Shown here: piece after piece, positions 22,748 through 38,300 of the stretch
How the letters are laid out: each line of letters opens with the position of its first letter
Numbering within the stretch: position 1 is the first letter of the stretch
NCBI GenBank assembly: GCA_016868775.1
Contig: VGFT01000005.1
Coordinates: 1-64,000 of the forward strand
Origin: Bacteroidota bacterium
GTDB taxonomy: Bacteria; Bacteroidota; Bacteroidia; Chitinophagales; Chitinophagaceae
DNA: 64,000 nucleotides
Reading direction: 5' to 3'
Notes under the pieces: generated by a model
Database searches by the model: none
What the model saw: only the letters and a program-made list of their open reading frames with translations
What the model was told of the DNA's origin: nothing
Translations under genes and position numbers: made by a program

Positions 22748-22752
22748 TTGCC

Positions 22753-24804
22753 ATGCGTTCAGCTTTTTTTCTATTGCTGCTTTTGGGAATCCTGCCGTTG
22801 TGGAGCGAGGTTCGCGCCCAAGACCCCGGCATTCGGGGTTTGGGGGACCGGATGGGTCAGATGGGTGGTATGCCTGGACGGGGAGGCGGACGTTTTCGAG
22901 GAATGGGTGCCGGCACGGGGGATAGCCTGCGACGGCGTGACCGGATGGAAGACTCCATCACAATTTTTTACCGACTCCTTGATTCACCCACGTTGTTTCG
23001 GCTCGACTCCTCCGTCAACGAAATCGACCGACGATTTCCCATACGCTCCGATTGGATTCACCTGGGAAACCTGGGTACTGCAGCCCGGCCACTGGCTTTT
23101 ACCCCGCGTATGAAGCCCGGATTCGACCCCGGATTTCATTCGCTGGATATCTATGCCTGGACCCCCGAGCAGGCCCGTTTCTACCAAACAACAAGGCCTT
23201 ATACCGACCTGAACTACCTCTTGGGTAGTCGAGCCGAGCAGATAATTGAGCTTCTCCATACCCAAAACATCCGTCCCCAATGGAATATTATGGTTAGCTA
23301 CCGAATGATCAATGCACCTGGTTTTTTTCAAAACCAAATCAGCAATCACCATAATTATGCGCTCACCAGCCGATATCAATCCAATAACCTCCGCTACACC
23401 CATTTCTTTTCTCTAACCTCCAACAAGCTACAAGTAGGTGAAAATGGCGGAATCTCCGAGTCAGGTAATTTACTAGATGACCCAGTCTATAAAGAGCGTT
23501 ATACCCTGCCAACCCTGATCGGAGGCACCAATACTTTCTCTGCCAATTTTTTCAGCGCACAGATCCGAACCGGGAATTTTTACCGGAACACTCCATTTTT
23601 TTCAAGGCATCAATACGACTTCGGTAGGAAAGATTCGCTGGTCACCGATTCTACCGTCATTCCCCTTTTCTTTCCCCAATTTCGGGTGGAAGCAACCCTT
23701 CGACACGATCGCCAACAATTCGGCTTTCGCGATGCACGTGGAGATTCTACCTACTATGGCCCCCGTTATGGTTGGCGCTGGTTGCAACGGTATGATACCG
23801 TCGATGTACAGGATAACTGGGAAGTGCTCTCCGGGGAGTTGGCCCTCTATCAGTTTCCCGATCCTAAGAACCTGCATCAATTCATCCGGGTTTCTGCAAC
23901 CATGCAGTCCTATCAAGGTGTTACAACATTCTTTCGTCCCCGTTTTGTCAATACCTCCGTTCGCGGTGAATACCGAAACCGAACGCGAAATAAGAAGTGG
24001 GACCTATTGGCTGATGCCGAATTCTATCTGACCGGATTTAACCAAGGCGATTATCACCTACAGGCCTCTCTGCTTCGAAACCTGTCAAAACAACAAGGGG
24101 CCTTGCGGCTGGCCTTCGAACAAGCCAATCGTCAGCCATCTTTTTTATTTGATGCCCGAAGCAGTTTTCATCCCATGCCTTTCCTTTTCGAAGCAAAAAA
24201 GGAAAACCTGACCCGCCTATTCGGGGAGTTGCGGCTAGAGAAAATCGGACTGGAGCTCAGTGGAAATTATTATCTGATCAGTCAATGGGCGTACTGGACA
24301 AAGTTCAATCAGGCCCAACAAACAGCGGGACTCTTTAACCTGATTCAGCTGCGCGCCGCCAAAACCTGGCGTCTGGGTAAGTTCTGGCGATGGAATGCAG
24401 AGGTTATCTGGCAACAGCGAATCGGCGCCGTTCCCCTGAATGCGATCCCCTTTTTTACCCGACATAGAATTGGATACGAGGGAAATCTGGGGTTCAAGAA
24501 CCTGCAACTGGCAACCGGACTGGAAATCCGATACCGATCTCCTTATCTGGCGGATGCGTATTCACCAGTGTTGGGACAGTTCTTCTACCAAGACAGTGTT
24601 TCCATACAAAACACACTGCCCGATATTTCGGCCTATGCCCATTTTCGCATAAGGCCTTTTACGGCATTTGTTCGTGCGGAAAACCTGAATACGGCCCGTG
24701 ACCTAAATGGCTTTGGCTTTACCCGTAACAATGCAGTGGCACCCGGGTACTATCTTCCTGGTTTACAGGTCCGAATCGGGGTTTTTTGGCGTTTTGTAAA
24801 TTGA
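22753..24804 (+). CDS. Putative porin (Porin_10 family)
   Basis: 683 residues. Signal peptide MRSAFFLLLLLGILPLWSEVRAQ. A Gly/Met/Arg-rich linker follows (MGQMGGMPGRGGGRFRGMG), then a plug-like region and a large beta barrel with alternating aromatic strands, ending with KFWR- and VFWRFVN-like strands. The pattern YQTTRPYTDLNYLLGSRAEQ and QNIRPQWNIMVSYR is typical of the Bacteroidota Porin_10 group. Outer membrane; solute unknown. ATG 22753 gives an intact signal peptide and sits 5 nt after a -7 box. Confidence 0.86.
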   Translation: MRSAFFLLLLLGILPLWSEVRAQDPGIRGLGDRMGQMGGMPGRGGGRFRGMGAGTGDSLRRRDRMEDSITIFYRLLDSPTLFRLDSSVNEIDRRFPIRSDWIHLGNLGTAARPLAFTPRMKPGFDPGFHSLDIYAWTPEQARFYQTTRPYTDLNYLLGSRAEQIIELLHTQNIRPQWNIMVSYRMINAPGFFQNQISNHHNYALTSRYQSNNLRYTHFFSLTSNKLQVGENGGISESGNLLDDPVYKERYTLPTLIGGTNTFSANFFSAQIRTGNFYRNTPFFSRHQYDFGRKDSLVTDSTVIPLFFPQFRVEATLRHDRQQFGFRDARGDSTYYGPRYGWRWLQRYDTVDVQDNWEVLSGELALYQFPDPKNLHQFIRVSATMQSYQGVTTFFRPRFVNTSVRGEYRNRTRNKKWDLLADAEFYLTGFNQGDYHLQASLLRNLSKQQGALRLAFEQANRQPSFLFDARSSFHPMPFLFEAKKENLTRLFGELRLEKIGLELSGNYYLISQWAYWTKFNQAQQTAGLFNLIQLRAAKTWRLGKFWRWNAEVIWQQRIGAVPLNAIPFFTRHRIGYEGNLGFKNLQLATGLEIRYRSPYLADAYSPVLGQFFYQDSVSIQNTLPDISAYAHFRIRPFTAFVRAENLNTARDLNGFGFTRNNAVAPGYYLPGLQVRIGVFWRFVN

Positions 24805-24814
24805 CCTAACTTTG
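24785..24814 (+). promoter_or_regulatory. Promoter: TTTG at 24785 and TAACTTTG at 24807
   Basis: A -33 TTTG (24785-24788) is separated by 18 nt from an exact -7 TAACTTTG (24807-24814). The -7 box ends 5 nt before the ATG at 24820. It drives the exported metal-handling cassette and lies partly inside the end of the porin gene. Confidence 0.6.
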
Positions 24815-24819
24815 TATGC

Positions 24820-25215
24820 ATGCGTAAAGGGATCTATGCCATAATTGTAGCGGTTTATCTCCTGCTTAGTTCAGGGGTGGTCGTGCGGTTGCACTTTTGC
24901 ATGGATCGCCTTGCCCAGATCGGGTTTTTTTCGTCCGACCATCAAGACACCTGCGACGATTGCGGGATGGCAATGAATGCCGAAAACGATTGTTGCCAAG
25001 ATCGAACCGATGTCATCAAATTGATCCAAGACCAAACTTTTCATCCAGTATCTACTGATTCTGCCAAAATAACGGAGGTTGAGCTTTCGACAAGCGTATT
25101 TGATCCATTCCCGATTCAGGTCGGTCAGCTTAATCCCAACCCGATCCGGACCAACCCACCCGACCCATTGGTTGGTCGTTATCGCTACCGGACCTTGCAA
25201 GTCTTTCGAATTTGA
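24820..25215 (+). CDS. HYC_CC_PP family exported protein
   Basis: 131 residues. A hydrophobic N-terminus (IYAIIVAVYLLLSSGVVVRL) is followed by HFC (the HYC motif), CDDCGMAM, the CC of NDCCQD and the PPDP of the C-terminus, in the order that names this family. Cys-rich spacing and frequent linkage to copper genes in Bacteroidota suggest a role in metal handling in the periplasm. Biochemistry unknown. First gene of a five-gene rightward cassette. Confidence 0.8.
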   Translation: MRKGIYAIIVAVYLLLSSGVVVRLHFCMDRLAQIGFFSSDHQDTCDDCGMAMNAENDCCQDRTDVIKLIQDQTFHPVSTDSAKITEVELSTSVFDPFPIQVGQLNPNPIRTNPPDPLVGRYRYRTLQVFRI

Positions 25216-25282
25216 TTCGAATGGGAACGTTTAGCTACTATCCTTCTACAAACATTTTTTAAATATCTCAAATTCCGAATTC

Positions 25283-25861
25283 ATGAAAAATATTCTCACT
25301 TTCCTCGCCATCGTTCTCACCTTGAACCTGGCCGCCCAACAAACCACCACGTTTGCTGTTTCCGGTAATTGCGGCATGTGTAAGTCTCGCATCGAGAAGG
25401 CTGCCAAAGAAGCCGGCGCAACCGCAGCCAGCTGGAACACGGAATCCAAACAATTGACCGTCACCCTGCCTGCCAACATCACCTTGGCATCCATCCAACA
25501 AAAAGTTGCTGCCGTAGGGCACGACAATGCCGGCGCCAAAGCAACCGATGAGGTTTACAACAAACTTCATGGCTGCTGCAAATACGATCGCAACGGCGCG
25601 GTCGAATCAAAAGATAAAACCAAAGAATCTTGCTGCCAATCGGGTGAGTCGTGCAAGCACGATGAGGCGGCGAGTGCTGGTTCCTGTTGTGACAAGCCTT
25701 GTTGCAAAGACGGGAAATGCGCCAATTGCGGCGATTGTTGCAAAGACGGGAAATGCACCAAAGGCGGCGATTGTTGCAAGTCGGACGCGGGAAAAAGTTG
25801 TTTGGACGGCAAATGCAGCAAGCCGGGCCACGCAGGAAAAGATTGTTGCAAGAAATCCTAA
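25283..25861 (+). CDS. Exported HMA domain fused to a Cys-rich metallothionein-like tail
   Basis: 192 residues. Signal peptide MKNILTFLAIVLTLNLAAQ. Residues about 20-85 form a heavy-metal-associated domain with the soft-metal site GNCGMCKSRIEKAAKEAG. The remaining 98 residues hold about 20 Cys, mostly as CC pairs and CCKDGKC units, with Lys, Asp and Gly between them. Known HMA domains bind Cu(I) or Zn; the tail looks like a bacterial metallothionein-style metal sponge. Placing it outside the cytoplasm is unusual. The gene ends TAATG, coupled to the next HMA gene. Two 36-bp repeats encode part of the tail. Confidence 0.8.
   Translation: MKNILTFLAIVLTLNLAAQQTTTFAVSGNCGMCKSRIEKAAKEAGATAASWNTESKQLTVTLPANITLASIQQKVAAVGHDNAGAKATDEVYNKLHGCCKYDRNGAVESKDKTKESCCQSGESCKHDEAASAGSCCDKPCCKDGKCANCGDCCKDGKCTKGGDCCKSDAGKSCLDGKCSKPGHAGKDCCKKS
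25701..25780 (+). repeat. Two 36-bp tandem repeats plus partial third in the Cys-rich tail
   Basis: 25701-25736 and 25737-25772 are near-identical and begin GTTGCAAAGACGGGAAATGC; a third copy starts at 25773 and diverges after 8 bases. They translate as CCKDGKCANCGD, CCKDGKCTKGGD and CCKSDAGKSC. The copies show that the tail grew by in-frame duplication of a 12-residue metal-binding unit. Confidence 0.85.
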
Positions 25862-26379
25862 TGTCACAAAGTTCCTTTCGTAAGGTCGCCGGATTAACGA
25901 CGACCTTACTCTTTTTTGTGTTTCCGCTTTGCGCACAGTTCAGTCAGGGTCGGCTGCAGGCTACGGGACTGACTTGTGCTCTTTGTAGCAAATCTATCCA
26001 TCAGGCATTAGATCAACTTCCATTCACTGAATCGGTCAACCCCGATTTGAAGTCCTCCTCTTTCGATATTCGATTCAAGATGGGGCAACCGGTGTCCGCT
26101 TTATCGATCCGAACAGCTGTGGAAGATGCGGGTTTTTTTGTTGGTCAACTGCGTCTAGAACCGACGTCGGATATAATGGATTCCTTACGTTCCGGGAATC
26201 CATTTCAGTCAGCCGGTATTATTTATCGCCTGCTCGAGGAATGGCGCGAAGGAAAACGACTTTTGGTGATTGGAAAAGGGTTTCTTACTGAAAAAGAGTA
26301 CAAGCGTCTTGATGGTCGTTATCCGGAATTGAGTAAGGAGGTAGATTCAGTTGTCTATTTACTGCCCGAAAAGAAATGA
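25861..26379 (+). CDS. Exported HMA-domain protein
   Basis: 172 residues. Signal peptide SSFRKVAGLTTTLLFFVFPLCAQ. The HMA signature is GLTCALCSKSIHQAL (about residues 37-51), with CxxC for soft metals. After the domain a helical region and VIGKGFLTEKEYKRLD follow, unrecognised. ATG 25861 overlaps the TAA of the previous gene, so I reject the upstream in-frame start at 25699 inside that gene. Overlaps the thioredoxin-like gene by 4 nt. Likely a periplasmic metal chaperone working with its neighbours. Confidence 0.8.
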   Translation: MSQSSFRKVAGLTTTLLFFVFPLCAQFSQGRLQATGLTCALCSKSIHQALDQLPFTESVNPDLKSSSFDIRFKMGQPVSALSIRTAVEDAGFFVGQLRLEPTSDIMDSLRSGNPFQSAGIIYRLLEEWREGKRLLVIGKGFLTEKEYKRLDGRYPELSKEVDSVVYLLPEKK

Positions 26380-26864
26380 TCACGTCTATTCGAATATTTC
26401 TTCTTGCCTGTTTCTGGTTCTCCGTCAGCAATGCAGCTGCACAGTTTTTAAATGGGAAAAAAGCGTTTCCCCTTGTCCTTCCTGATCCTTCGGGGAAGGT
26501 TATTTCATTGGACTCGCTCCAGGGGAAATGGGTCTTGGTTGATTTTTGGGCTTCTTGGTGCGGTCCTTGCCGGTTGGCCAATCGGACGGTTCGCAAGTAT
26601 TATCCCCAATGGAAAAAAAATGGCATAGAGGTTCTGGGCGTTTCTCTGGATGAAAATCGTACCGGGTGGATCAAGGCCATTAAAAAGGACCGGATTCATT
26701 GGCTGCAGGTCAACACGCCGGCTCAGTGGGACAGTCAGCTGGTCCTTCAATGGAACGTTGAGCGGATCCCTACGACCTATTTGATCGATCCCAGTGGCGT
26801 GATCCGTGCCACCAACCCGGATCCAAAGGAAATCCTTTCCTTGATCTCAAAAAGTAAGCCATGA
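26376..26864 (+). CDS. TlpA-like exported thioredoxin
   Basis: 162 residues. A signal peptide or anchor (IRIFLLACFWFSVSNAAA) precedes a thioredoxin fold: WVLVDFWASWCGPCRLAN holds the CGPC redox site, GVSLDENRTGW the TlpA/ResA insertion, and RIPTTYLIDPSGVI the cis-Pro loop (IPTT). Such proteins keep periplasmic Cys reduced, including those of copper proteins. That fits its place between an HMA-domain gene and an outer-membrane protein gene, with ATGA overlaps on both sides. Confidence 0.9.
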   Translation: MITSIRIFLLACFWFSVSNAAAQFLNGKKAFPLVLPDPSGKVISLDSLQGKWVLVDFWASWCGPCRLANRTVRKYYPQWKKNGIEVLGVSLDENRTGWIKAIKKDRIHWLQVNTPAQWDSQLVLQWNVERIPTTYLIDPSGVIRATNPDPKEILSLISKSKP

Positions 26865-27682
26865 TCCGATCGGTTTTATGTTGGTTTCTTTTTACTGCAC
26901 AGGCATTATCGGCACAGGAACTCTATGTTTTTTCCGATCCGGCCTCCAACATTCCGGCCCGCTCCGTCAATGTAAAACTTAAGACGCATGGCGTGGGTAC
27001 TGACATGATCTTCGGGCGAAATGCTTACCGGGTGATGCCACAGGTAATGGCCGGACTTACCAAAAAAATACAACTGCGCTTCTCGGCCTCGGCCTCCAAC
27101 ATGCATACGAAATCCCTGGAGACCGAGTCAATCAACCTGGGTGCGAAATATCGTTTTTTATCCCTCGATGGCATCCATCAGCACTTCCGTATGGCTACTT
27201 ATGTTGATGGCAGCATCACCCGAATTCCGTTTCATTACGAGGAGATCACGCTGATGGGGGATAAGACTGGGGTGGAGGTTGGTCTGATCGCCACACAGCT
27301 GTGGCATAAACTGGCGGTATCGGGAACCGTGAGTCGAACAGAAGTATTGGATAAATCCAGAAATGACGGATTGGTTTATTTCCCCAAAAGACAATATCAA
27401 TCGCTCAACTACTCCCTCTCTGCGGGATATCTGCTTCTGCCAAGGGAGTACAAAAATTACAAACAGCCAAATCTCAACATTTATGTGGAGCTGCTCGGTC
27501 AGCGGTTGATCGGAACTGATCTGAATTATATTGATCTTGCACCGGCTTTGCAGCTGATCTTGAACAGTCGAATCAAGGTAAATGTAGGCAGGCGTTATCA
27601 GCTGCAGGGAAATATGCAGCGGATGGCCTCTCAGAGCTGGCTGTTTAGCGTGGAGACCAGCTTTTTACAGGTCTGGAAATAA
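26861..27682 (+). CDS. Exported protein, probable outer-membrane beta barrel of the metal cassette
   Basis: 273 residues. Signal peptide MIRSVLCWFLFTAQALSAQ. Alternating hydrophobic strands throughout (INLGAKYRFLSL, LAVSGTVSRTEVL, YSLSAGYLLLP, LNIYVELLGQRLIG, WLFSVETSFLQVWK) with a terminal aromatic strand indicate a small outer-membrane barrel. I do not recognise the family. It overlaps the thioredoxin gene by 4 nt and ends the cassette. It converges with the transporter-like gene, leaving one base between stops. Confidence 0.65.
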   Translation: MIRSVLCWFLFTAQALSAQELYVFSDPASNIPARSVNVKLKTHGVGTDMIFGRNAYRVMPQVMAGLTKKIQLRFSASASNMHTKSLETESINLGAKYRFLSLDGIHQHFRMATYVDGSITRIPFHYEEITLMGDKTGVEVGLIATQLWHKLAVSGTVSRTEVLDKSRNDGLVYFPKRQYQSLNYSLSAGYLLLPREYKNYKQPNLNIYVELLGQRLIGTDLNYIDLAPALQLILNSRIKVNVGRRYQLQGNMQRMASQSWLFSVETSFLQVWK

Positions 27683-27683
27683 G

Positions 27684-28460
27684 TTACCTTTTTTTTGTAA
27701 GTGTTCGGAAGGAAAATCCCACGGCAACATAGTAATCGGTTGCCGCTTCGGTAAGTCCGTAGGATCCCGACAGATCGATCTTGGTATCATCGGTAAAATA
27801 ATAGGCCAATCCCCCCGCGATCGAGTGTTGCGGAGCACTACCTTTTCGAACCGATCCCCAAAGCTCTACGTACCCGTATCCATTTTTCCCAATATTATAT
27901 CCTGGAGCAAAGGTGTAGATCCAATCGGGCGTATCGCTGAAACCGTCCCATTCCGCCCCCACGTTATATCCAACTGCGGCCCGCTCACTCAAGGTGTTTT
28001 GCATCACAAAACGGAAATTCGGCGCCCATTTTGGCGTCTGAAAAACGGCTCCGCCCCAGCGGGGCAAAGCGGTATGTGCGATCAGCGATGTCTTAGGCCG
28101 CAAGCCCTTCTCTTCGGCCAAGGCCAATTTCCCGCCAAACTGGATCGGCAGCAGACCGGTCTTTCGGTTGGCGATCGTGGTGCCTGATTTAATTTGAATG
28201 GTCTGCATTTCAGTGATCATCCGAAATTCAAATCGCTCGTTCAGTCCATATTTCCAAAGAGCCGTTGGATGAACCCATTGCGTGAGTCCATCTACCTTTT
28301 CGAGGTTAAATCCTAACTCGGCTTGTAGGTAGTTTTTTTTGGTGAGGTAGGGCGACTCGGTCTGATCCGGCCGGTCCGTTTCCATACGGCCCGTCTGCTG
28401 GGCCAGTAACTCGTAACTCGCCGACAGAAATAAGGTCAGGGTAATAAACGATTTTTTCAT
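27684..28460 (-). CDS. Outer-membrane transporter-like protein (phenol MetA degradation family)
   Basis: 258 residues. Signal peptide MKKSFITLTLFLSASYELLAQ. The motif METDRPDQTESPY followed by YLQAELGF, and later beta strands FEFRMITEMQ, YVELWGSVRKG and YYVAVGFSFRT, fit the Bacteroidota branch of the MetA-pathway putative transporters, which form outer-membrane barrels. The start is 2 nt after the stop of the ATP-grasp-like gene, so it is the last gene of the ligase operon. It could export or import that pathway's product or substrate. This functional link is inference. Confidence 0.68.
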   Translation of the reverse strand: MKKSFITLTLFLSASYELLAQQTGRMETDRPDQTESPYLTKKNYLQAELGFNLEKVDGLTQWVHPTALWKYGLNERFEFRMITEMQTIQIKSGTTIANRKTGLLPIQFGGKLALAEEKGLRPKTSLIAHTALPRWGGAVFQTPKWAPNFRFVMQNTLSERAAVGYNVGAEWDGFSDTPDWIYTFAPGYNIGKNGYGYVELWGSVRKGSAPQHSIAGGLAYYFTDDTKIDLSGSYGLTEAATDYYVAVGFSFRTLTKKR

Positions 28461-28462
28461 AT

Positions 28463-29668
28463 TTATCCTGCTCTCGATTCAAAAAAACAAACGCTGCCCC
28501 CCACCCAACTACGATCTTTATTATACCGCGTGCCAATCATTTTGCCTTTGCTCAGGCGTGCTAGATTCAAGGTAGGAATTGGCCGAGAGGCATTCGGTGG
28601 CCAGAAATAAAACAGCCGGATCTCCACTTTTGCCGGGTCGTCAGGCGTCGGGATCAAAGGCGCATAGGTTACTTTTTGTTGCAAGATCCAGTTTTCGGGA
28701 TCGGGGATGTTGGCAAGGTCCCCCGGACTTGGGTCAATGATCACTCCTTGTCCGGCAAAAGAAAATAACGGCTTTAGCACGAATTGACTCAGATCGGCCG
28801 GGATTTGCTTGACCTCGTTTAAAAAATAGGTTTTGGGCACACCCGGATGATGCAGATAAGGAAGCAAGAATTTACTGACCCGGTAAAACCAGTGGGGATG
28901 TGGACACCATTCCACGGAATGACACCCGGAAAGAAGTGCCCCTTGATTCCGGATGCGATCCGGTTGCTGCTCCAACTCGTCAAAAATGATCCGGTTATAG
29001 ATCCGTTTTATCGGATGCCAGGTGCCATTTCGTTCATAGAACAGATCACCGTTTTTCTCCCGCAGTTCCGTTAGGCAAGCAATGGGGATCTTGAGTAGTT
29101 CCGATGTGATGTAAAAGTCGATTCGGGTTTTTTGTTGATCCGGCACTATTTCCAACAAGACCACCTCTTTTGGGTCATGCTCTCCCAAAATGATTTGCCG
29201 TAGCAGTTGTTGATAGCTCGCTTGGTCGAGGCCACTCAAAAAGGGACTGAATGAGGGATCGAGGTCAAAAAACTCCCGGTAGGCGTTGGCCAATAGGGAC
29301 TGATAGCCAAAGAGTGTTGGGAATCCCTGTAGTTCGATGAGTTGAGGTGAAAATTGCCCCGTTTCCTGGCTGCAAACGCCAAAATCAAAGGCAAGAAAAT
29401 CGGGCCGCCCCTCGTTTCCGGGGATCTTCCATCGCTCGGGTATGGAACGCTGTGTCGCTTTCATGAAATCCGGCTCCAAGATCCGATCAATCACGTACTC
29501 GCAGGTATCGAGGAGTTGCTGCGTAAAGGAACGATCGATAAACACGGGAGTCTCTGCAACCCGAAAATCCAATGCGCCCGGATAGTTCCGCTCGAATTCT
29601 TGCAACAGGCGCTCGTAGGCGGCCGAATCGAAGGATCGGTTAAAGGAATGACGGATCGGTTGGATCAT
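28463..29668 (-). CDS. Divergent ATP-grasp-like ligase of unknown family
   Basis: 401 residues, no signal peptide. The C-terminal third shows ATP-grasp features: FVLKPLFSFAGQGV (Lys 299 and glycine loop), NWILQQKV (about 326-333, adenine-side hinge), VEIRLFYFW (348-356) and RLSKGKMIGTRYNKDRSWVGG with possible metal and phosphate contacts. The N-terminal 280 residues, including RPDFLAFDFGVC and PQLIELQGFPTLFGYQ, are unfamiliar and may bind the substrate. I know no named family for it. It sits between the amidotransferase (50 nt upstream) and the transporter gene (2 nt downstream). Amide-bond formation is inferred from fold and context. Confidence 0.6.
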   Translation of the reverse strand: MIQPIRHSFNRSFDSAAYERLLQEFERNYPGALDFRVAETPVFIDRSFTQQLLDTCEYVIDRILEPDFMKATQRSIPERWKIPGNEGRPDFLAFDFGVCSQETGQFSPQLIELQGFPTLFGYQSLLANAYREFFDLDPSFSPFLSGLDQASYQQLLRQIILGEHDPKEVVLLEIVPDQQKTRIDFYITSELLKIPIACLTELREKNGDLFYERNGTWHPIKRIYNRIIFDELEQQPDRIRNQGALLSGCHSVEWCPHPHWFYRVSKFLLPYLHHPGVPKTYFLNEVKQIPADLSQFVLKPLFSFAGQGVIIDPSPGDLANIPDPENWILQQKVTYAPLIPTPDDPAKVEIRLFYFWPPNASRPIPTLNLARLSKGKMIGTRYNKDRSWVGGSVCFFESRAG

Positions 29669-29718
29669 CTGACAAATTCAGTCAGTAAGATACGTCATTG
29701 GATAGATTGAGTCAAGCA

Positions 29719-30564
29719 TCAGGGGGTTACTCCCAGCAAGCTTTCTGCAGCCTGGTTCAGGAAGTTTGGAATCACCTGCGCATAGGTGAGTCGAATCTTG
29801 TCCTCATCCTCCAAATGGTCCAACATGCGCTGCCATTTTTCCTCTCCATGGTGCTCGATCACTTGTTGCTTTTTTTCTTCCTGCATCAGGTATAACCGCA
29901 TCCCCTCCGGATCGGCTTCCGGATGAAACTGGGTGCCGATCATCCACGGGTTGATACGTGCGGCCATCAATGCTCTTTCAAAAGTTACATGGGGACGCTC
30001 TTTTTCCAGGCAAAGGGTCATGCCGCCCATTTCCGCCAGCCGGTCTTCGTTCGGGTGAATGACTTGATAATCCCGACTGTCAACCACATAAAATGGTTCC
30101 GATAATCCTTCAAAGGTCGATTCTTCCCTTCCGCCGCTGAGTCGATGCACGGGAAATACGCCAAAGGCAGTGCTGTGTCTTTTACAAACCATGCCCAATT
30201 TCAAGTGGCGGCATGCCAATTGAAACGAGTGGCAAATAAAGAAGACAAATTTTTTCTGGGTCGAATCGGGGTTTTGGTTGTGGCGCACGAGTGCATCGAG
30301 CCAACGACACCAACCGATGTCCCAATCTTCATAGCGGGTAGATAAGGGATCTCCCGGTCCGCCGGTCGACAAATAGACATCGTAATCCATCCCCGGTAAA
30401 GCGCCTTGCAGGCGTACCTCAAACGTATCTATGCTTAGTTCGATTTGCTCTCGGCTCGACCATTCGTGTAGGATCTGATGGATGCAGCGCATTCCTTGAT
30501 TCGGTACTCCCTGATAGAGATCCAAAATGGCTACTCGCAAACAGGGCGCAGGGGAGGCAATCAT
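29719..30564 (-). CDS. Class I glutamine amidotransferase-like protein
   Basis: 281 residues from ATG 30564. The GATase1 triad is present: Cys111 in FFICHSFQLAC, His215 and Glu217 in GTQFHPEADPEG. The opening VAILDLYQGVPNQGMRCI is shared by a stand-alone group of such proteins. Family members release ammonia from glutamine or, in related forms, hydrolyse gamma-glutamyl bonds; which applies here is unknown. A GTG at 30624 would add 20 residues without a recognisable segment. Third from the end of the ligase operon. Confidence 0.82.
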   Translation of the reverse strand: MIASPAPCLRVAILDLYQGVPNQGMRCIHQILHEWSSREQIELSIDTFEVRLQGALPGMDYDVYLSTGGPGDPLSTRYEDWDIGWCRWLDALVRHNQNPDSTQKKFVFFICHSFQLACRHLKLGMVCKRHSTAFGVFPVHRLSGGREESTFEGLSEPFYVVDSRDYQVIHPNEDRLAEMGGMTLCLEKERPHVTFERALMAARINPWMIGTQFHPEADPEGMRLYLMQEEKKQQVIEHHGEEKWQRMLDHLEDEDKIRLTYAQVIPNFLNQAAESLLGVTP

Positions 30565-30635
30565 GGCGCAAACATAGCTGAATTCACATCCGCAGGTGGT
30601 GATCGGTTGCGGGAGATTCTCCACAACTTATGGAT

Positions 30636-32300
30636 TTATTTTTTCTGATAAACGGCTTTTCCGTTTAAGTAAGTGGCAAGGACTTGTGTTTGTATGATTT
30701 TTTCAGGATCCACTTGCATCAGGTCTTGATCCAGCACTACAAAATCGGCCCATTTCCCTTTTTCAAGGCTTCCTTTGGTTTTTTCTTCGAAACTTCCTTT
30801 TGCAGCCCATATGGTCATTCCACGAAGTGCCTGTTCCCGCGTCAGGGCAAATTCAGGCAGAAAGCCATCGCTGGGCCATCCGGCGGCATCCTTACGAATC
30901 ACGGCACTGTAAAATGTTTTTATCGGCGAAATATCTTCCACCGGGAAATCTGTTCCCAGGGGCATCCAGCCGTTCTGTTCCAGCAAGGTTTGATAGGCGT
31001 ATGCGTGTTTGATGCGTTCACTTCCCAATCGACGCTCGGCCCAATACATGTCGGAGGTGGCGTGGGTGGGTTGTACCGAGGGGATCACCCGCAGCTGACG
31101 GAAAAGTACCAGGTCGTATGGATTCACGACTTGTGCATGCTCTATTCGCCAGCGTAAATTATTTCGTTTTGGTAAATACTTTGCGTAGGTGTTTAGGATC
31201 ACGCGGTTTCCGCTGTCGCCAATGGCGTGGGTGCAGAGTTGCCATTCCTTTTCGAGCGACCACTTGGCAACGGAATCGAAATGTGCTGGCTGACTCAGCA
31301 AAAAGCCATAATGACCGGGTTGATCATGATACGCATGCAGCAAACAAGCTCCGCGCGAGCCCAGGGCACCATCTCCGTACACTTTGATGCTGTGAACGGT
31401 CATCCGATCGGTTTTGATCTTTCCGTTATCTTCTGCAAATCGGTAGTTCGTGGGGTCGTCGCTCAACATCACATTCAGCCGGATCAGCAGTTTTTCTTCC
31501 TCCTGCAGTTTCATTAGTTTTTTTACCTGAGAATGATGCAAGCCACAATCGGTAAGTGAGGTGAGTCCGGATTCAAAACAATTTCGTTGCGCCTGCAGCA
31601 TTGCGGAGGTGTATTCTTCTTCACTTGGGGCAGGGATCAATTTTGATACGCGGTCGACTGCGTTGTCGATCAGCAAACCGGTCAATTTACCCATTCGCGT
31701 CACGTATTCTCCTCCCACGATCGTATCGCCGGGTTGTACACCGGCCATTTTCAAGGCAGTTTGGTTGGCGAGTGCCGCATGACCGTCGATGCGGATGAGC
31801 AGTGCAGGACGATCCGGAAATAAATCGTTCAGCGCACGGTTATCAGGGAATTCCTTTACCGGCCAATCGTTTTGGTCCCAACCGCGACCAACGACCCAAC
31901 CGTTGGGTCGCTCGGAAAAAAATGATTTTGTCCGTTCAAGGGTTTCTTGCAAACTGGTGGTGCCTACCAGGTTCGCTTCCTGCAACCCCAGTGCATATTG
32001 AATAAAGTGCGCATGCGCATCATTGAGTCCGGGTACGATGGTTCGTCCCCCCATGTCTTTGATGGAATCCGATTTAAATTTTTGCTCGATGGATGCGCGG
32101 CTGCCGGTAGCGAGGATTTTTCCATCCCGTATGGCCATGGCCTCTGCAACGGAGAATACGGAATCCGCTGTATAGATGCGGGCGTTTACGATCAGACAAT
32201 CGGCTTGTTTCTTGAAGGAGCAGGCATGCAGGATGAACAGCAAGAAAAATCCACCCAGGCGACTTAGCCTGAAGGGGGGGAGGGAGGATCTAAAGTCCAT
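30636..32300 (-). CDS. Lipoprotein amidohydrolase (YtcJ-like, amidohydrolase family 3)
   Basis: 554 residues from ATG 32300. A signal peptide ends in LLFILHAC with lipobox Cys27. The TIM-barrel metallohydrolase signature PGLNDAHAHF (His96, His98) follows a short beta domain with VNARIYTADSVF and AMAIRDGKILATG. Later metal residues appear in WRIEHAQVV and LGTDFPVED. YtcJ-like enzymes hydrolyse amide or imidate bonds of small molecules; the lipid anchor places this one in the periplasm. It overlaps the carboxylate-amine ligase gene by 11 nt, so I reject the longer frame starting at 32465. Confidence 0.88.
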   Translation of the reverse strand: MDFRSSLPPFRLSRLGGFFLLFILHACSFKKQADCLIVNARIYTADSVFSVAEAMAIRDGKILATGSRASIEQKFKSDSIKDMGGRTIVPGLNDAHAHFIQYALGLQEANLVGTTSLQETLERTKSFFSERPNGWVVGRGWDQNDWPVKEFPDNRALNDLFPDRPALLIRIDGHAALANQTALKMAGVQPGDTIVGGEYVTRMGKLTGLLIDNAVDRVSKLIPAPSEEEYTSAMLQAQRNCFESGLTSLTDCGLHHSQVKKLMKLQEEEKLLIRLNVMLSDDPTNYRFAEDNGKIKTDRMTVHSIKVYGDGALGSRGACLLHAYHDQPGHYGFLLSQPAHFDSVAKWSLEKEWQLCTHAIGDSGNRVILNTYAKYLPKRNNLRWRIEHAQVVNPYDLVLFRQLRVIPSVQPTHATSDMYWAERRLGSERIKHAYAYQTLLEQNGWMPLGTDFPVEDISPIKTFYSAVIRKDAAGWPSDGFLPEFALTREQALRGMTIWAAKGSFEEKTKGSLEKGKWADFVVLDQDLMQVDPEKIIQTQVLATYLNGKAVYQKK

Positions 32301-33399
32301 GTAGAAATTGTTGATGGATATAATGAGCGACTGCCTTGAGGTCTTTGGTTTGTTCATGGATGCGGAGTTGTCGGTCGGCTCCGGTTCCATTTTCCAGTAT
32401 GGTTTGAACTCTTTCAATGCGGTGGCGACTTCCCAGTTGATCCAGCACCGGGTCCAGAAAGTCAAGTAATTCGCCGATCAGGATTCGGGCACTTACTTCC
32501 TCTTCTTTGCCAAAGTCGATCAGATTTCCATCCACCCCATAGCGGCTGGCCCGCCATTTGTTCTCGTTTAGCAAGGCACGGGAGTATTGTATGAAATTCA
32601 GGTTCTTGGATCGAAGCATATAGATGCGAGCGCAGATCGCCTGGAACAAGGAGGCGATGGTGATGGTTTCCTCCACCGTCATCGGAATGTCACAGATCCG
32701 GAACTCGACTGTATTGAAAAAGGGGTGTACGCGCAGGTCCCACCAAATCTTTTTGGCATTGTCGATGCAATTGGTCTTGATGAGCAACTTCACATAATTG
32801 TCATATGCTTCGATGCTGTCAAAGGCATCCGGAATGCCGGTGCGCGGAAATTTGTCAAAGACTTTGGTGCGGTAGGATTTGTAGCCGGTCTTTCGTCCTT
32901 CCCAGAAAGGCGAATTGGTGCTAAGGGCGAAGATGTGGGGTAAAAAATAGCGCGTGCTGTTGGCAATGTGGTTGGCCATTTCCCGGCTCTCCATGCCTAC
33001 GTGCACGTGCAGGCCGAAGATCAGGTTGCTGCGGGCAGCGTCTTGTAATTCATTTACGATCTCGCTGTAGCGGACATGTTCGGTGATCAGTTGGCTTTCC
33101 CAGTGGCTGAACGGGTGCGTGCCGGCAGCGCCCATGGCAAAGCCCAGGTTATGGGCAATTCCATGGATGCATTTCCGGAGGTTTGAAACATCCTGAAAGG
33201 CCTCATCGGCATCCGCGCAGATATCGGTTCCAACCTCCACGACCGCTTGGTGCATCTCGGCCTTTACTTTTTCCTTAAGCAGTTTATGGCCCTCCTGTAC
33301 GATCTGTTGTTCATGGCTTTTCAATTCCAGTGTGGTGGGATCCAGCACCATGTATTCTTCTTCTACTCCGATCGTGAATGTTTTATAATTCAGTGCCAT
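32290..33399 (-). CDS. Carboxylate-amine ligase (YbdK/GCS2 family)
   Basis: 369 residues. FTIGVEEEYMVLDP at the N-terminus and NLIFGLHVHVGMES are signatures of the glutamate-cysteine ligase family 2 (YbdK) fold, a glutamine-synthetase-like ATP-dependent amide ligase. Other conserved parts are AAGTHPFSHW, WWDLRVHPFFNTVEFRICD and ENKWRASRYGVDG. E. coli YbdK has only weak glutamate-cysteine ligase activity, and physiological substrates are mostly unknown. It is 17 nt after the RimK-like ATP-grasp gene and overlaps the amidohydrolase gene, so all act in one operon. Confidence 0.92.
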   Translation of the reverse strand: MALNYKTFTIGVEEEYMVLDPTTLELKSHEQQIVQEGHKLLKEKVKAEMHQAVVEVGTDICADADEAFQDVSNLRKCIHGIAHNLGFAMGAAGTHPFSHWESQLITEHVRYSEIVNELQDAARSNLIFGLHVHVGMESREMANHIANSTRYFLPHIFALSTNSPFWEGRKTGYKSYRTKVFDKFPRTGIPDAFDSIEAYDNYVKLLIKTNCIDNAKKIWWDLRVHPFFNTVEFRICDIPMTVEETITIASLFQAICARIYMLRSKNLNFIQYSRALLNENKWRASRYGVDGNLIDFGKEEEVSARILIGELLDFLDPVLDQLGSRHRIERVQTILENGTGADRQLRIHEQTKDLKAVAHYIHQQFLHGL

Positions 33400-33416
33400 A
33401 GGAGGGTGATTTGAAA

Positions 33417-34370
33417 TTAAATCAACGGTTGCTGATGGCTGCTTCGCTTCACGTATTCGCCCCAGGTGAGGTTATCTTTTCCGGGTTGCTGGGCCAGGGC
33501 TTTTTCGATGGCGAACTGGGCGGCGGTCTCCACCACCCACTCAAAATTTTCTTCGCCCACACTGGACCGGTCGGCATCGGGGGCGGGGTTGCAAAAGTCG
33601 ATGGCATAGGGAACACCCTCCCGCACGGCCAATTCAACCGTGTTGAAATCATAGCCCAGGTAGCGGTTGATGGTAAGCACGATGTCGGTCATTTGCTTCA
33701 AGCGTTCGGGGGTGGGGGCAAAATCGGCTACATAGCGCAGGTGATGGGGATTACGGGGCTCATAGGGCATGATGCGTACGTGTTTTCCTCCGATGCAGTA
33801 GCAGCGATAATATTCGGTAAATACGATCTCTTCTTGTAGCAGCATTACGAGTTGCCCCGTTTCGGCGTGCTTGCTATAAAACTCTTCTGCGCTACGAAGT
33901 TTATAGACGTGTTTCCATCCGCCGCCGGCAAAAGGTTTTATGTAGGCCGGAAACCCGACGTAGTCAAATATGCTTTTCCAGTCGAGCGGATAAGCGAGGT
34001 TCGCAAATGATTCGGGTGAGGTGTCATCGGGCAGTTCTCGGGAAGGAATGATGGCCGTTTTGGGAACAGGAACGCCCAGTTGGGTCATCAGGCAGTTGTT
34101 GAAATATTTATCGTCGGCACTCCACCAAAACGGATTGTTGATCACGGCGGTTCCGGTGACGGCAGCATTTTTCAGCCAAGTGCGGTAGAAGGGGACGTCT
34201 TGGGAGATCCGGTCGATGATTATGGCATAGCCGCAGGGTTCGCCTTGCATGGCTTTGTCCAACCGCACCGGCTCGGCCACTATGCCGGGGATGTTCTTGC
34301 TGTTGATGCGGTTCACAAATGCTTCGGGGAAGCTTCTTTCTTTGCCGTGAAGAATGCCAATTTTTTTCAT
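33417..34370 (-). CDS. RimK-like ATP-grasp ligase
   Basis: 317 residues from ATG 34370. ATP-grasp elements are clear: FPAYIKPFAGGGWKHVYKL (ATP lysine and glycine-rich loop, about residues 150-168), VMLLQEEIVF (hinge), and FNTVELAVREGVPYAIDFCNPAPD with the metal-binding Glu/Asp/Asn set. The N-terminal MKKIGILHGKERSFPEAFVN is a RimK/Ddl-type pre-ATP-grasp fold. It would join a carboxylate to an amine with ATP. The nearby -7 box leaves ATG 34370, not an ATG three codons earlier, at the expected transcript start. First gene of the leftward operon. Confidence 0.88.
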   Translation of the reverse strand: MKKIGILHGKERSFPEAFVNRINSKNIPGIVAEPVRLDKAMQGEPCGYAIIIDRISQDVPFYRTWLKNAAVTGTAVINNPFWWSADDKYFNNCLMTQLGVPVPKTAIIPSRELPDDTSPESFANLAYPLDWKSIFDYVGFPAYIKPFAGGGWKHVYKLRSAEEFYSKHAETGQLVMLLQEEIVFTEYYRCYCIGGKHVRIMPYEPRNPHHLRYVADFAPTPERLKQMTDIVLTINRYLGYDFNTVELAVREGVPYAIDFCNPAPDADRSSVGEENFEWVVETAAQFAIEKALAQQPGKDNLTWGEYVKRSSHQQPLI

Positions 34371-34376
34371 ATGTAT

Positions 34377-34408
34377 CAAATGTATTTTGTCGGCCGCACT
34401 TTGTCAAA
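34377..34408 (-). promoter_or_regulatory. Leftward promoter of the ligase operon
   Basis: On the minus strand, -33 TTTG (34408-34405), 20-nt spacer, -7 TACATTTG (34384-34377). The -7 box ends 6 nt before the ATG at 34370, so the message is nearly leaderless. Its -33 box abuts that of the divergent esterase promoter. Confidence 0.68.
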
Positions 34409-34430
34409 ATAATTCGCGCGGGTACCTTTA
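34400..34430 (+). promoter_or_regulatory. Rightward promoter of the esterase gene
   Basis: -33 TTTG (34400-34403), 19-nt spacer, -7 TACCTTTA (34423-34430), ending 21 nt before the ATG at 34452. TTTGTCAAA at 34400-34408 is a 9-bp palindrome that carries both divergent -33 boxes, so the two polymerases probably compete or share an activator. Confidence 0.62.
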
Positions 34431-34451
34431 GCCTTTCCCTATTTTTACGGG

Positions 34452-35264
34452 ATGTCGGAACCAATTGTACTGGCTGTTGACGGACCAACCGCTCAAAAGT
34501 GGAACTCCTCTGCTTTGGGTAGAGAGGTATGGGTTGATCTCTATCTGCCAGCTGGACCATTGCCAGAGTATTGTCCGCTGCTCTTGGTCAACGATGGACA
34601 GGACCTGCGCACCATGGAGTTTGAGCGGATCTTGGATTCGCTATGGAGGGAAGAAGCGATTGGTCCACTTTTGGTTGCCGCCGTACACGCGGGAAAGGAC
34701 AGGCGGATGGAATATGGAACCATTGACGAGCCAGATTATTTGGGAAGGGGCAATCGAGCCGGTACGTACCGCGATTTTCTCTTAGAGGAGTGCCTTCCCC
34801 GCATACAGCAGTTATTTCCACAAACCAAGGCACAAAAGCTATCGTTGGCGGGTTTTTCGTTGGGCGGTTTATCGGCAATAGACCTGGCATGGCAGCATCC
34901 CGAGCGATTTTCCTCTGTGGGAGTTTTCTCCGGATCATTTTGGTGGCGCAGTGCGGCGCAGGAAGATCCCTTGTATTCAGATGACAAACACCGGATCATG
35001 CATCAGCGGATACGGTGTGCAGCCGGATCGAGCGATCAACGTTTCTTTTTTCAGTGCGGCGCGATGGATGAACCCAATGACCGAAACCAAAACGGGGTCA
35101 TCGATTCGATCGACGATACCCTGGATTTGATCGAGGAATTAGCGCGCAAAGGTATTTCCCGTTCCACTCAGATCTATTATTTGGAACTTGCCGATGGGAA
35201 ACACGATATATCCAGTTGGGCAAGGGCTTTCCCCTTTTTTCTATGGTGGAATTACGGAAAATAA
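34452..35264 (+). CDS. Alpha/beta hydrolase esterase (esterase D/enterochelin esterase-like)
   Basis: 270 residues, no signal peptide. Nucleophile elbow LAGFSLGGLSA (Ser136), oxyanion region VVAAVHAGKDR-like, and a late His in ELADGKHDISSW complete a Ser hydrolase. A loop NDRNQNGVIDSIDDT looks like an EF-hand-type calcium loop. The family (COG2382/2819-like) cleaves esters and some amides of siderophores, peptides or glutathione adducts. It is transcribed divergently from the ligase operon through an overlapping promoter region, so I infer that it processes the same product. Confidence 0.85.
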   Translation: MSEPIVLAVDGPTAQKWNSSALGREVWVDLYLPAGPLPEYCPLLLVNDGQDLRTMEFERILDSLWREEAIGPLLVAAVHAGKDRRMEYGTIDEPDYLGRGNRAGTYRDFLLEECLPRIQQLFPQTKAQKLSLAGFSLGGLSAIDLAWQHPERFSSVGVFSGSFWWRSAAQEDPLYSDDKHRIMHQRIRCAAGSSDQRFFFQCGAMDEPNDRNQNGVIDSIDDTLDLIEELARKGISRSTQIYYLELADGKHDISSWARAFPFFLWWNYGK

Positions 35265-35309: not shown

Positions 35310-38300
35310 TTAGTTGAAAATGTAGCGGAGACCGAACTGCATGTTGTATGTGGAGAAGATGCTCACGTTGTCGCGGAAGGTGCGGGTGATCATCTCGTTC
35401 TGCGCAGTGGCCAGCTTGAAGGTCGGAACCACGGCACCACCTGGGATCAGCGAGTTTTGATTCTGCGGGATCAGGATGGAGCTGTTGTTGATCGACTTCA
35501 GCTTGCCCCAGCTCGGATTGAGCAAGTTGCCAAAGTTGAAGATGTCGATCGTGAATTGCAGGGTGTTCTTTGTCTTCCCCATTTTGGTAAATACATCCTG
35601 CGCAAATTTCACATCCAAGCGGTTCAGCCAGGGAATTTGGGCGCCGTTACGTTCAGCATATTGACCGCGGTGTGCACGCAGGTATTTATCTTGTTGGATA
35701 TAGGATTCAAACAAATTACGCTGAGCGGTCTGGTCGTATGTAACACCATTTTGGGTATGGCTGACAAATTGCATTTGTTGCAATTCAGAAACGGTGGGAA
35801 TGTAGATCAGGTCATTACCATTCACTCCATCGCGGTTGAAGTCGCCGTTGTAGGTGTAGGAGAAGCGTCCGTTGATACCACCATTATAATAGAGAGAGAT
35901 GCTGGTGGCCAGGTGTTTGAGGTACTCTTTGCGGTAAGCTAATACTGCTACCACGCGGTCAGGGATTACGTAATCCGCGTAAGAAAGATTCTGGTAGTTC
36001 GAACCGGCCACGGAGGCAGTTCCTTGCCAAGCGGAGAGGGGCTGGTCGCCACCGCCATCAAACAAGTTACCCGCCATTGATTTGGTGTAGGCAACAGAGG
36101 CGGAAAGTCCTTTGGTGAAGGTTTTTTCCAGTTTGGTGGTCAAGGAGAAATAATAACCACGGGACGCGTTGTCGAGGATGATCGGATTGAACTGGTTGGG
36201 TGCTCCGGCGGCAAAGACACCGGCGTTGGTCAGTGTGTTCAAGAAGCGAGTCTGCACAGTGGCACCGTACATCGGACGGCTATCTGGGTAACCGGCTACG
36301 TTCAGCGGAACGGGCGCAAGGATGTTGGCATGACGGAAAAATGCGGTTACGAGGTCTTTGTTGAAGATTGCTTCGATGGTTGCGATGATGCCGCCGGGCA
36401 ATTTCGCATCAATCGCCAAGCTGGATTTCCAGGATTGGGGATTTTGGAAATCGTTGGCTAGGGCTGTGATCGAACCGGGGATAACGGTACCGGCTTGGGG
36501 TACAACGGCCGGGCGATAAGCGGCGGGGTTGGGATTGAACGGACCAGGAGTGTTGGCCTGTCCGTTGAATGATTGAGTGATCTGCAGCATTCCATTATCA
36601 CCCGATTGGCTCACGATCCATACGAAGGGCACACGGCCGGTAAATACGCCGGTTCCGCCACGGATCTGCAGCGAACGATCGCCATAGAGATCCCAGTTGA
36701 ATCCAAAGCGGGGAGACCACATGATTCTTTTCTTGGGCAGTACGCCGGTATTGATCTTTTCTCCGCCTACAAATGTGGCAGAGGCGATCAAGGGGTGGGT
36801 AATGATCTGGGGGGCGAACGGATAGGTAGGCAGATCGGCGCGCAGACCAACCGTAACGCGCAAGTTCTTATTTACAGCAATCTCATCCTGTCCGTAGAGT
36901 GAATATTGAGCAAATCGGAAGGCAGAAAAAGCTGGGGCAAAGTCAGGAGAAAGCGAATACGTGAATGCAAATTCGCGGGGCTTGGCACGCAGCGCCGGGT
37001 TGGGGTTCAGGGCGCTGGCAAAATCAGCCCAAGTATTGAATACGTAGTAGCTGGTCGCAAAGCGTTGGAAACCGTTGATGGTTTCGCTGTAATCGATTTG
37101 TCCGCCTACGGTCCATTTGTGCTTGTTCTTTATCCAACTGAAGTAATCAATTAATGAATACGTTTTCACTTTGCGAACATTCCCGAAGCTGAAGGGCTCA
37201 AATCCGAAAGAAGTGTAAGGAGCAGACGAAGCCACACCGGTTGTGCTCAGGATGTCCACGAAGGGGAATATCTGGCTCTCGGTGGTACGGGAGTCGTTTT
37301 GATAGGTGAACGTACCGCGTAAAGTGTTCGATACTTTGCCCAGATTGGAGTTCAACTCAGCAGCGATTGAATACAGATTTGCACCCTGGAAGTAGTTGGA
37401 GTTTTTGTACCAGATCGAGTTGATGTTGGTACGTCCCAATCCGGAAGCATAGTTGAATCCGGCACCCGAGGTAGAACCAGAAGGCGTGAAAGGCTCCCCG
37501 CCTTCTACTTGGCTGTAGCGAACGTTGAAGCGATGGCGCTCGTTGATGTTCCAGTCGATCCGGGCCATGTATTTGGTCCGCTCGATGTTCGGGGTATAGT
37601 TGTCATACGGACCGGTTTCGTATCCGTAGTTTGTTAACAAATATTGACGAATGAAATTCAGCGAGTCGGCTGTAGGGCGGGCGATGTTGGGGCTGCTTCC
37701 AAAGGTTGCGCCCGGGGTAGCCGCGACGTTTGTCTGCAGCAACTTGGGCGAGGTTTCGGTTTCGTAGTTAAAGAAGAAGAAGAGTTTGTCCTTGATGATC
37801 GGCCCACCCAAACGGAATCCATACTGCTTGAATTCTTCAGCAGCAGGCGTGAAGTAGGTTTTTTCTACCCGGCGTCCGCGTTGATTCTCGTTGCGGAAAT
37901 ACGTGTATACCGAACCAGAGAAGGTGTTGGTTCCGGAGCGGGTAACGGCATTGATGGCGCTTCCGATGAATCCGGTCTGACGAATGTCGAACGGGGTGAT
38001 GTTAACCGAAACTTCTTCAATGGCATCGATGGAGATCGGTGATCCGCCGGCGGGCAGGTTGGATCCGATACCGAAGCTGTTGTTGAAGTCTGCTCCGTCA
38101 ACGGTAAAGTTGTTTTGGCGGTAGTTACCTCCGGCGACGGAGGCTCCATTGGCCTGAGGGGTAATCCGGGTGATGTCATTCAAACTCCGGCTAATGGTGG
38201 GGAGTTGATTGATCTGGCGTACGCCGATGTTGGTAAGCGCGCCCGTCCGTCCCGAATTCAGGATTGCATTTTTTCTACCGCCGGTGATGACAACTCCCGT

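What the first reader, a model, noticed from the sequence alone, without database searches (positions are those of the whole stretch)
27684..35264. Candidate undescribed amide-ligase pathway: RimK-like ATP-grasp, GCS2 ligase, lipoprotein amidohydrolase, class I amidotransferase, orphan ATP-grasp and outer-membrane transporter, with a divergent esterase
Six tightly packed leftward genes (gaps +17, -11, about +71, +50 and +2 nt) encode three ATP-dependent ligase candidates, a GATase1 with intact Cys-His-Glu, a periplasmic lipid-anchored amidohydrolase and a barrel protein. An esterase is divergent. Established: GCS2/YbdK and ATP-grasp enzymes make amide bonds, and mixed amidoligase neighbourhoods have been noted in comparative genomics, mostly with unknown products. 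Inference: two or three ligases build a small peptide-like or gamma-glutamyl conjugate in the cytoplasm, the amidotransferase-like protein supplies ammonia or trims it, the transporter moves it, and the amidohydrolase and esterase cleave it. No cytoplasmic peptidase, NRPS or ribosomal precursor is evident, so the substrate may be a metabolite.
Basis: partly seen in the sequence, partly recalled or inferred. Interest (0 to 1): 0.78.

Follow-up and report, generated by a model that had tools for sequence, protein, structure and literature searches.

The report
Conserved two-ligase pathway in Bacteroidota
This stretch carries a widely conserved but uncharacterised bacterial pathway in which two ATP-driven joining enzymes, usually with a third, probably build a small peptide-like molecule and a cutting enzyme probably trims it; what the molecule is remains unknown.

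Summary
In 395 sampled Bacteroidota genomes the RimK-like ATP-grasp occurs in 126 and the second ATP-grasp (ATPg2) in 113; 109 have both. Sixteen of the 17 genomes with RimK but no ATPg2 carry a different, circularly permuted ATP-grasp directly after RimK. The GATase slot also swaps: 8 of 80 pathway genomes have an M29-type metallopeptidase, none of the 8 has the GATase, and in 7 it sits in the GATase position. This favours a hydrolase over an ammonia donor. ATPg2 has no Pfam or NCBIfam hit; its predicted fold is closest to glutathione synthetases. GCS2 is a common partner (112 of 126). The esterase adjoins RimK in 77 of 80 loci of close relatives but in 18 of 39 wider ones. The lipoprotein amidohydrolase and the barrel look lineage-specific. 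Bacillithiol synthase BshC is present with or without the pathway (39 of 40; 40 of 40), so it is not a simple bacillithiol substitute. The product is unknown; best guess, a gamma-glutamyl or peptide-like conjugate. The 2009 amidoligase survey of Iyer et al. could not be read, so an earlier mention is possible.

The parts
33417..34370 (-). RimK-like ATP-grasp ligase (the ORF starts at 34379)
   Evidence: Weak RimK/LysX HMM hits far below cut-off; predicted fold, pLDDT 83, matches D-Ala-D-Ala ligase, RimK and ArgX with E about 1e-12; in 126 of 395 genomes
32290..33399 (-). GCS2 (YbdK/PRK13515 type) carboxylate-amine ligase
   Evidence: NF010039 518.9 bits, cut-off 371; PF04107; 116 of 395 genomes at orthologue level, 112 of them with the RimK-like gene
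29719..30624 (-). Class I GATase-like protein, more likely a hydrolase than an ammonia donor (probable start ATG 30564)
   Evidence: PF00117 just below cut-off in the window, above it in a homologue; Cys-His-Glu invariant in 18; 85 of 395 genomes
28463..29668 (-). Second ATP-grasp (ATPg2), predicted glutathione-synthetase-like fold, no Pfam or NCBIfam family
   Evidence: No family hit; model pLDDT 87; best PDB matches glutathione synthetases and 3n6x, E 5e-14 to 2e-13 for the top three, TM-score about 0.5-0.6; 113 of 395 genomes
34452..35264 (+). Divergent PF00756 esterase
   Evidence: PF00756 97.3 bits; upstream of RimK on the opposite strand in 77 of 80 RimK-centred loci of close relatives; with RimK in 18 of 39 RimK-bearing wide loci
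30636..32300 (-). Putative lipoprotein amidohydrolase (Amidohydro_3); lineage-specific neighbour, role uncertain
   Evidence: PF07969 294 bits; window type in 8 of 80 wide loci, all of the window's family; lipobox judged by eye
27684..28460 (-). Outer-membrane barrel of the Phenol_MetA_deg family; probably a passenger
   Evidence: PF13557 71 bits; homologue in 3 of 80 wide loci

Best explanation
The core (RimK-like ATP-grasp, GCS2, GATase, second ATP-grasp, often an esterase) is a dedicated cytoplasmic amide-ligase pathway of Bacteroidota. SHOWN by comparison: the RimK-like ligase and a second ATP-grasp of the glutathione-synthetase/circularly permuted kind co-occur with few exceptions. The second ligase exists in two forms that nearly exclude each other, and the slot between GCS2 and the second ligase holds either a GATase or an M29-type metallopeptidase, or in some lineages nothing. 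GCS2 orthologues are frequent and almost confined to these genomes. INFERRED: GCS2, where present, starts by joining a carboxylate, probably the gamma-carboxyl of glutamate, to an amine. The second ATP-grasp extends the product at a carboxylate through an acyl-phosphate, as glutathione synthetase does. The RimK-like enzyme adds a further amino acid or amine. The GATase or M29 enzyme hydrolyses one of the amide bonds, as a gamma-glutamyl hydrolase or aminopeptidase would, and the esterase acts on an ester or thioester of the product. The product is a small peptide-like conjugate of unknown identity.
For: 109 of 113 ATPg2 genomes hold the RimK-like gene, in a sample of 395. 16 of the 17 RimK genomes without ATPg2 hold a CP-ATP-grasp, directly after RimK in all 16 and next to the GATase in 15 of 16 (coordinates). 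That family was found in 0 of 80 genomes without RimK (80 of 262) and in 1 of 80 with ATPg2 (80 of 113). Fixed order and strand in 37 of 80 wide loci. Slot swap: M29-type gene in 8 of 80 pathway genomes, none with the GATase, which 66 of the other 72 have. Carriers and non-carriers of ATPg2 occur within five single genera, so shared ancestry alone does not explain the pattern. Folds: ATPg2 like glutathione synthetases, RimK-like like Ddl/RimK/ArgX. ATPg2 keeps D95, E112, Q114 and K299 in all 28 aligned homologues, comparable to D141, E163 and N165 of the related ligase Cp1B (PMC12568646, passages).
Against: No substrate or product evidence exists. 14 of 126 RimK genomes lack a GCS2 orthologue, so a GCS2-first order is not universal. 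Four ATPg2 genomes lack RimK (G144, G150, G220, G318), all with GCS2; in G150 the GCS2-GATase-ATPg2 run is intact and no RimK lies beside it. 43 of 126 RimK genomes lack the GATase: 8 of them have the M29 gene, 6 searched have neither, 29 were not searched for M29. Profile comparison of ATPg2 with the CP-ATP-grasp was weak (probability 22), so their equivalence rests on mutual exclusion, position and fold class. The fold matches of ATPg2 have high rmsd (6-11 A). ATPg2 has Gln where Cp1B has Asn165 and no Arg in the place of Arg139. The esterase is with RimK in only 18 of 39 RimK-bearing wide loci.
Confidence: 0.5

Rival explanations
1. It makes a glutathione-like low-molecular-weight thiol that stands in for bacillithiol: GCS2 makes gamma-glutamyl-cysteine, ATPg2 completes it, the GATase is a gamma-glutamyl peptidase and the esterase hydrolyses thioesters.
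For: ATPg2's predicted fold is closest to glutathione synthetases; GCS2 belongs to the glutamate-cysteine ligase superfamily; the esterase has a weak hit to S-formylglutathione hydrolase TIGR02821 (19.5 bits, cut-off 281.7).
Against: BshC is in 39 of 40 pathway genomes and 40 of 40 others, so it does not replace bacillithiol, though an additional thiol is not excluded. The window's GCS2 scores 61 bits against a cut-off of 249 for the cyanobacterial glutamate-cysteine ligase. 14 of 126 genomes lack a GCS2 orthologue.
Confidence: 0.12
2. It is a protein-tagging or protein-tail modifying system: the RimK-like enzyme adds residues to a protein and the GATase or M29 enzyme removes them, as has been proposed for the Anbu operon.
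For: RimK and ArgX, among the closest folds, act on protein carboxyl groups (recalled); the Anbu operon couples an ATP-grasp similar to glutathione synthetase with other amide-bond enzymes (PMC6376114, passages).
Against: No alpha-E, transglutaminase or Anbu family among the eight window genes scanned. No obvious small substrate gene: among the 40 largest protein clusters listed for the wide loci (ORFs of 90 aa or more) those under 150 aa are a cupin in 6 loci and two others in 4 loci each. Shorter ORFs were not surveyed.
Confidence: 0.15
3. It is a ribosomal peptide (graspetide-like) cluster.
For: ATP-grasp ligases, alpha/beta hydrolases and TonB-type receptors also occur in graspetide clusters (PMC8939145, passages).
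Against: Gaps inside the window operon are at most 71 nt, leaving no room for a precursor there. ORFs under 90 aa around relatives were not surveyed.
Confidence: 0.04
4. The GATase is a true glutamine amidotransferase that feeds ammonia to one of the ligases.
For: Intact Cys-His-Glu and position beside ATPg2 or the CP-ATP-grasp.
Against: Replaced by an M29-type metallopeptidase in 8 genomes and absent in 43 of 126 RimK genomes; an ammonia supplier would be hard to replace by a peptidase.
Confidence: 0.15

Closest known systems
Mixed amidoligase gene neighbourhoods of Iyer et al. 2009, Mol Biosyst 5:1636 (not held; content recalled, and cited in PMC6376114 and PMC8939145)
   Same: ATP-grasp and glutamine-synthetase-like ligases clustered with amidases and peptidases, products mostly unknown
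   Different: I could not check whether this RimK/GCS2/GATase/ATPg2/esterase set is listed there; the two enzyme swaps were derived here
Anbu operon: ATP-grasp, alpha-E, transglutaminase, Anbu (PMC6376114, passages)
   Same: An ATP-grasp with similarity to glutathione synthetase beside other amide-bond enzymes
   Different: No alpha-E, transglutaminase or Anbu family among the window genes scanned; RimK-like, GCS2, GATase and esterase instead
Glutathione biosynthesis (glutamate-cysteine ligase plus eukaryotic-type synthetase)
   Same: A GCS2-superfamily ligase and a glutathione-synthetase-like fold in one pathway
   Different: No glutathione synthetase HMM hit, an extra RimK-like ligase, GCS2 sometimes absent, bacillithiol synthase coexists
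E-64 ligase Cp1B (PMC12568646, passages)
   Same: ATP-grasp making a small-molecule amide; its structure 9cjn is among the fold matches of ATPg2
   Different: Fungal; followed by the amide-forming enzyme Cp1D; no GCS2, RimK-like or GATase partner in the passages seen

Membership tests
YbdK/GCS2 carboxylate-amine ligase (NF010039) | score above curated cut-off | tested here: met
   518.9 bits against 371
RimK family (TIGR00768) | score above curated cut-off | tested here: not met
   26.6 bits against 143.4
RimK/Ddl-type ATP-grasp fold | structural match of the predicted model | tested here: met
   Foldseek E 5e-13 to about 2e-12 for the best Ddl, RimK and ArgX entries, TM-score about 0.6
Class I GATase (PF00117) | score above curated cut-off | tested here: inconclusive
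   Window protein 21.4 against 22.8; homologue in L060 31.3
Class I GATase (PF00117) | Cys-His-Glu triad | tested here: met
   C112, H215, E217 invariant in 18; naming them as the triad is recalled
Glutathione synthetase, eukaryotic type | family HMM hit | tested here: not met
   No Pfam or NCBIfam hit for ATPg2 at E 0.01
Glutathione-synthetase / circularly permuted ATP-grasp fold | structural match of the predicted model | tested here: met
   27 PDB matches at E <= 0.001: glutathione and homoglutathione synthetases and glutathione-synthetase-like proteins, plus 3n6x and 9cjn; TM-score 0.48-0.63 by query length
Glutathione synthetase, eukaryotic type | makes gamma-glutamyl-cysteinyl-glycine | not testable with these tools
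   needs an enzyme assay
Anbu / alpha-E system | alpha-E and Anbu genes in the operon | tested here: not met
   none among the eight window genes scanned by Pfam
Graspetide cluster | precursor peptide gene | tested here: inconclusive
   no room inside the window operon; ORFs under 90 aa in relatives not surveyed
Bacillithiol replacement | absence of BshC where the pathway is present | tested here: not met
   BshC in 39 of 40 pathway genomes and 40 of 40 others (lists checked)

The most novel reading that the evidence does not exclude
An unrecognised small-molecule pathway in about a third of sampled Bacteroidota: a modular two-to-three-ligase assembly line that makes a new gamma-glutamyl or peptide-like metabolite (cofactor, metal ligand or carrier), coexisting with bacillithiol, in which both the second ligase and the trimming hydrolase have been replaced by different enzyme families while the chemistry is kept.
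Probability: 0.35. Interest if true: 0.75.

Novelty: new variant of a known kind. Interest (0 to 1): 0.55.

Why it matters
If right, 126 of 395 sampled Bacteroidota genomes may share a metabolite that is not named in the papers I could search. The two swaps give a direct handle on its chemistry: the bond that the GATase cuts should also be cut by the M29-type enzyme, and the bond that ATPg2 makes should also be made by the CP-ATP-grasp. Named genera carry it: Pedobacter xixiisoli (L208), Niastella vici (L199) and Flavihumibacter petaseus (L185) have RimK, GCS2, GATase, ATPg2 and esterase in one locus; Niabella and Sediminibacterium show the RimK-GCS2-esterase part in the stretch held. Knock-out metabolomics looks feasible.

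Tried and rejected
Plasmid collection: no match for either ATP-grasp. Defence library PADLOC: no hit for five core proteins. Bacillithiol replacement: not supported by the BshC distribution. Sequence link of ATPg2 to the PDB: only a weak YgiC hit, E 0.008. Profile link of ATPg2 to the CP-ATP-grasp: weak, probability 22. VIA-align library not available. Literature: nine searches aimed at this gene set, its enzymes or possible products listed no paper that I recognised as describing this operon, judged from titles and abstract starts; one on gamma-glutamyl peptidase listed plant work (listing only). The library holds open-licence papers only. I saw passages of PMC6376114, PMC8939145 and PMC12568646, not the whole texts. 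Metal cassette beside ATPg2: 5 of 80 ATPg2 loci, too few to argue from.

Rows dropped before counts: seven genomes with distant RimK matches (E 1e-69 to 1e-113) before the 126; G272 was kept although its match is split in two; twelve GCS2 matches of 32-38% identity before the 116. These cut-offs were set after seeing the score gaps. The 80 labelled genomes were partly picked by hand for mixed genera.
Full report
OBSERVATION. Pfam and NCBIfam identify the GCS2 ligase strongly (518.9 bits, cut-off 371), the amidohydrolase, the esterase and a Phenol_MetA_deg barrel; the GATase falls just under its Pfam cut-off and neither ATP-grasp has a Pfam family. The window lies in an assembly of 2.03 Mb in 10 contigs, listed as 100% complete.

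WIDE CONSERVATION. The second ATP-grasp (ATPg2) was found in 113 of 395 phylum genomes and in 20 of 38 relatives, one of these (G397) only as a 33-residue remnant. The two searches list 114 and 21 matches, with the window's own in both. I fetched wide stretches (up to about 20 kb) around 80 of these 134 places, 72 from the phylum search and 8 from the relatives search. RimK, GCS2 and ATPg2 occur together in 37 of 80, always in that order on one strand. An alpha/beta hydrolase lies in 24 of 80 loci, typically just before RimK (PF00756 33 bits in the one member scanned). Apart from two titled 'uncultured bacterium' and one 'Williamsia sp.' MAG, possibly a mislabelled bin, I read the titles as Bacteroidota, mostly Chitinophagaceae. 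In those 80 loci the esterase is present in 77 and GCS2 in 78, while GATase is in 18 and ATPg2 in 16. This sample is close to the window; among the 39 RimK-bearing wide loci the esterase was found in 18. So there are two modules, esterase-(hydrolase)-RimK-GCS2 and GATase-ATPg2, adjacent in many lineages and often split in Chitinophagaceae.

CO-OCCURRENCE EVEN WHEN UNLINKED. The RimK-like gene was searched in the same 395 genomes: 133 at E <= 1e-20, 126 after dropping seven distant matches. ATPg2 and RimK share 109 genomes; 4 have ATPg2 alone and 17 RimK alone. GATase: 85 genomes, 83 of them with RimK. GCS2: 128 matches, 116 at orthologue level, 112 of these with RimK. The Fisher values ignore kinship. 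Among 80 labelled genomes that I listed, partly picked by hand, eight families and five genera hold both carriers and non-carriers of ATPg2, and RimK follows ATPg2 in all ATPg2 genomes but four, so shared descent alone does not explain the match.

FIRST SWAP. Sixteen of the 17 RimK genomes lacking ATPg2 carry a circularly permuted ATP-grasp (family A6; CP_ATPgrasp_2 above cut-off in both members scanned), found. By the coordinates it directly follows RimK in 16 of 16 and adjoins the GATase in 15 of 16 (G290 has the GATase on another contig). The family was found in 1 of 80 ATPg2 genomes (80 of the 113; G137, 351 bits against 656-954 in the sixteen) and in 0 of 80 genomes without RimK (80 of 262; one search is the positive control). 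The remaining genome, G381, has neither.

SECOND SWAP. An M29-type metallopeptidase (PF02073, 63.5 bits in the member scanned) was found in 8 of 80 pathway genomes searched; none of the 8 has the GATase, which 66 of the other 72 have. In 7 of the 8 it lies between GCS2 and ATPg2, by coordinates; in G208 it lies elsewhere. Five members aligned keep Glu, His and Asp in conserved blocks (reading them as M29 metal ligands is recalled). A peptidase taking this slot suggests that the GATase is a hydrolase.

STRUCTURE. ATPg2 was modelled from 15 sequences with mean pLDDT 87. Its 27 PDB matches at E <= 0.001 are glutathione and homoglutathione synthetases and glutathione-synthetase-like proteins, with the putative glutathionylspermidine synthase 3n6x and the E-64 ligase Cp1B; TM-scores are 0.48-0.63 and rmsd 6-11 A, so this is a fold-class match. 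3n6x is also the one PDB sequence hit of the CP-ATP-grasp. Sequence alone gives ATPg2 only a weak YgiC match. D95, E112, Q114 and K299 are invariant in 28 homologues. Cp1B uses R139, D141, E163 and N165 (PMC12568646, passages). The CP-ATP-grasp has R116, D118, E130 and N132 in all four aligned, whereas ATPg2 has Gln for Asn and no equivalent Arg. The RimK-like protein (pLDDT 83) matches Ddl, RimK and ArgX.

WHAT MAY NOT BELONG. The barrel has a homologue in 3 of 80 wide loci. The lipoprotein amidohydrolase occurs in 8 of 80, all of the window's family; a different amidohydrolase without a signal-like start (by eye) directly precedes ATPg2 in 9 loci of two distant families (Amidohydro_3 in the one scanned).

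RESULTS AGAINST. In G150 the run GCS2-GATase-ATPg2 is intact on a 21.6 kb contig without RimK, a true exception. Of 126 RimK genomes 43 lack the GATase (8 with M29, 6 searched with neither, 29 not searched) and 14 lack a GCS2 orthologue. In G033 ATPg2 lies far from RimK-GCS2 and from the GATase. ATPg2 and the CP-ATP-grasp align only weakly by profile.

RIVALS. A bacillithiol substitute is disfavoured: BshC occurs in 39 of 40 pathway genomes and 40 of 40 others. A graspetide is disfavoured for lack of space for a precursor in the operon. A protein-tagging system is not excluded. Iyer et al. 2009, the likeliest place for an earlier mention, is not held.

VERDICT. A real, widely conserved amide-ligase pathway with replaceable parts; its membership and gene order are well supported, its product is not known.

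Noticed in passing
22726-27682: Plus-strand cassette converging on the operon: large outer-membrane protein, HYC-type small Cys protein, heavy-metal-binding-like proteins, a thioredoxin-like protein and a barrel (names by eye and recall). HYC or HMA homologues lie in 5 of 80 ATPg2 loci, one of them (L104) in a distant family and co-directional with ATPg2.
   Followed up: partly
25283-25861: Heavy-metal-binding-like protein with a Cys-rich repeated tail, metallothionein-like by eye.
   Followed up: no
May point to import of a ligase substrate.
   Followed up: partly
L055:8770-9129: A small protein follows ATPg2 in 6 of 80 wide loci; the one scanned is a cupin.
   Followed up: no
L049: In a congener (G397) only a 33-residue remnant of ATPg2 matches, beside an amidohydrolase; several small-genome congeners, some incomplete, have no ATPg2 match.
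   Followed up: no
35310-38666 and 38841-43565: TonB-type receptor and a TamB-like protein beyond the esterase; homologues lie in 42 and 20 of 80 RimK-centred loci, probably family-level gene order.
   Followed up: no
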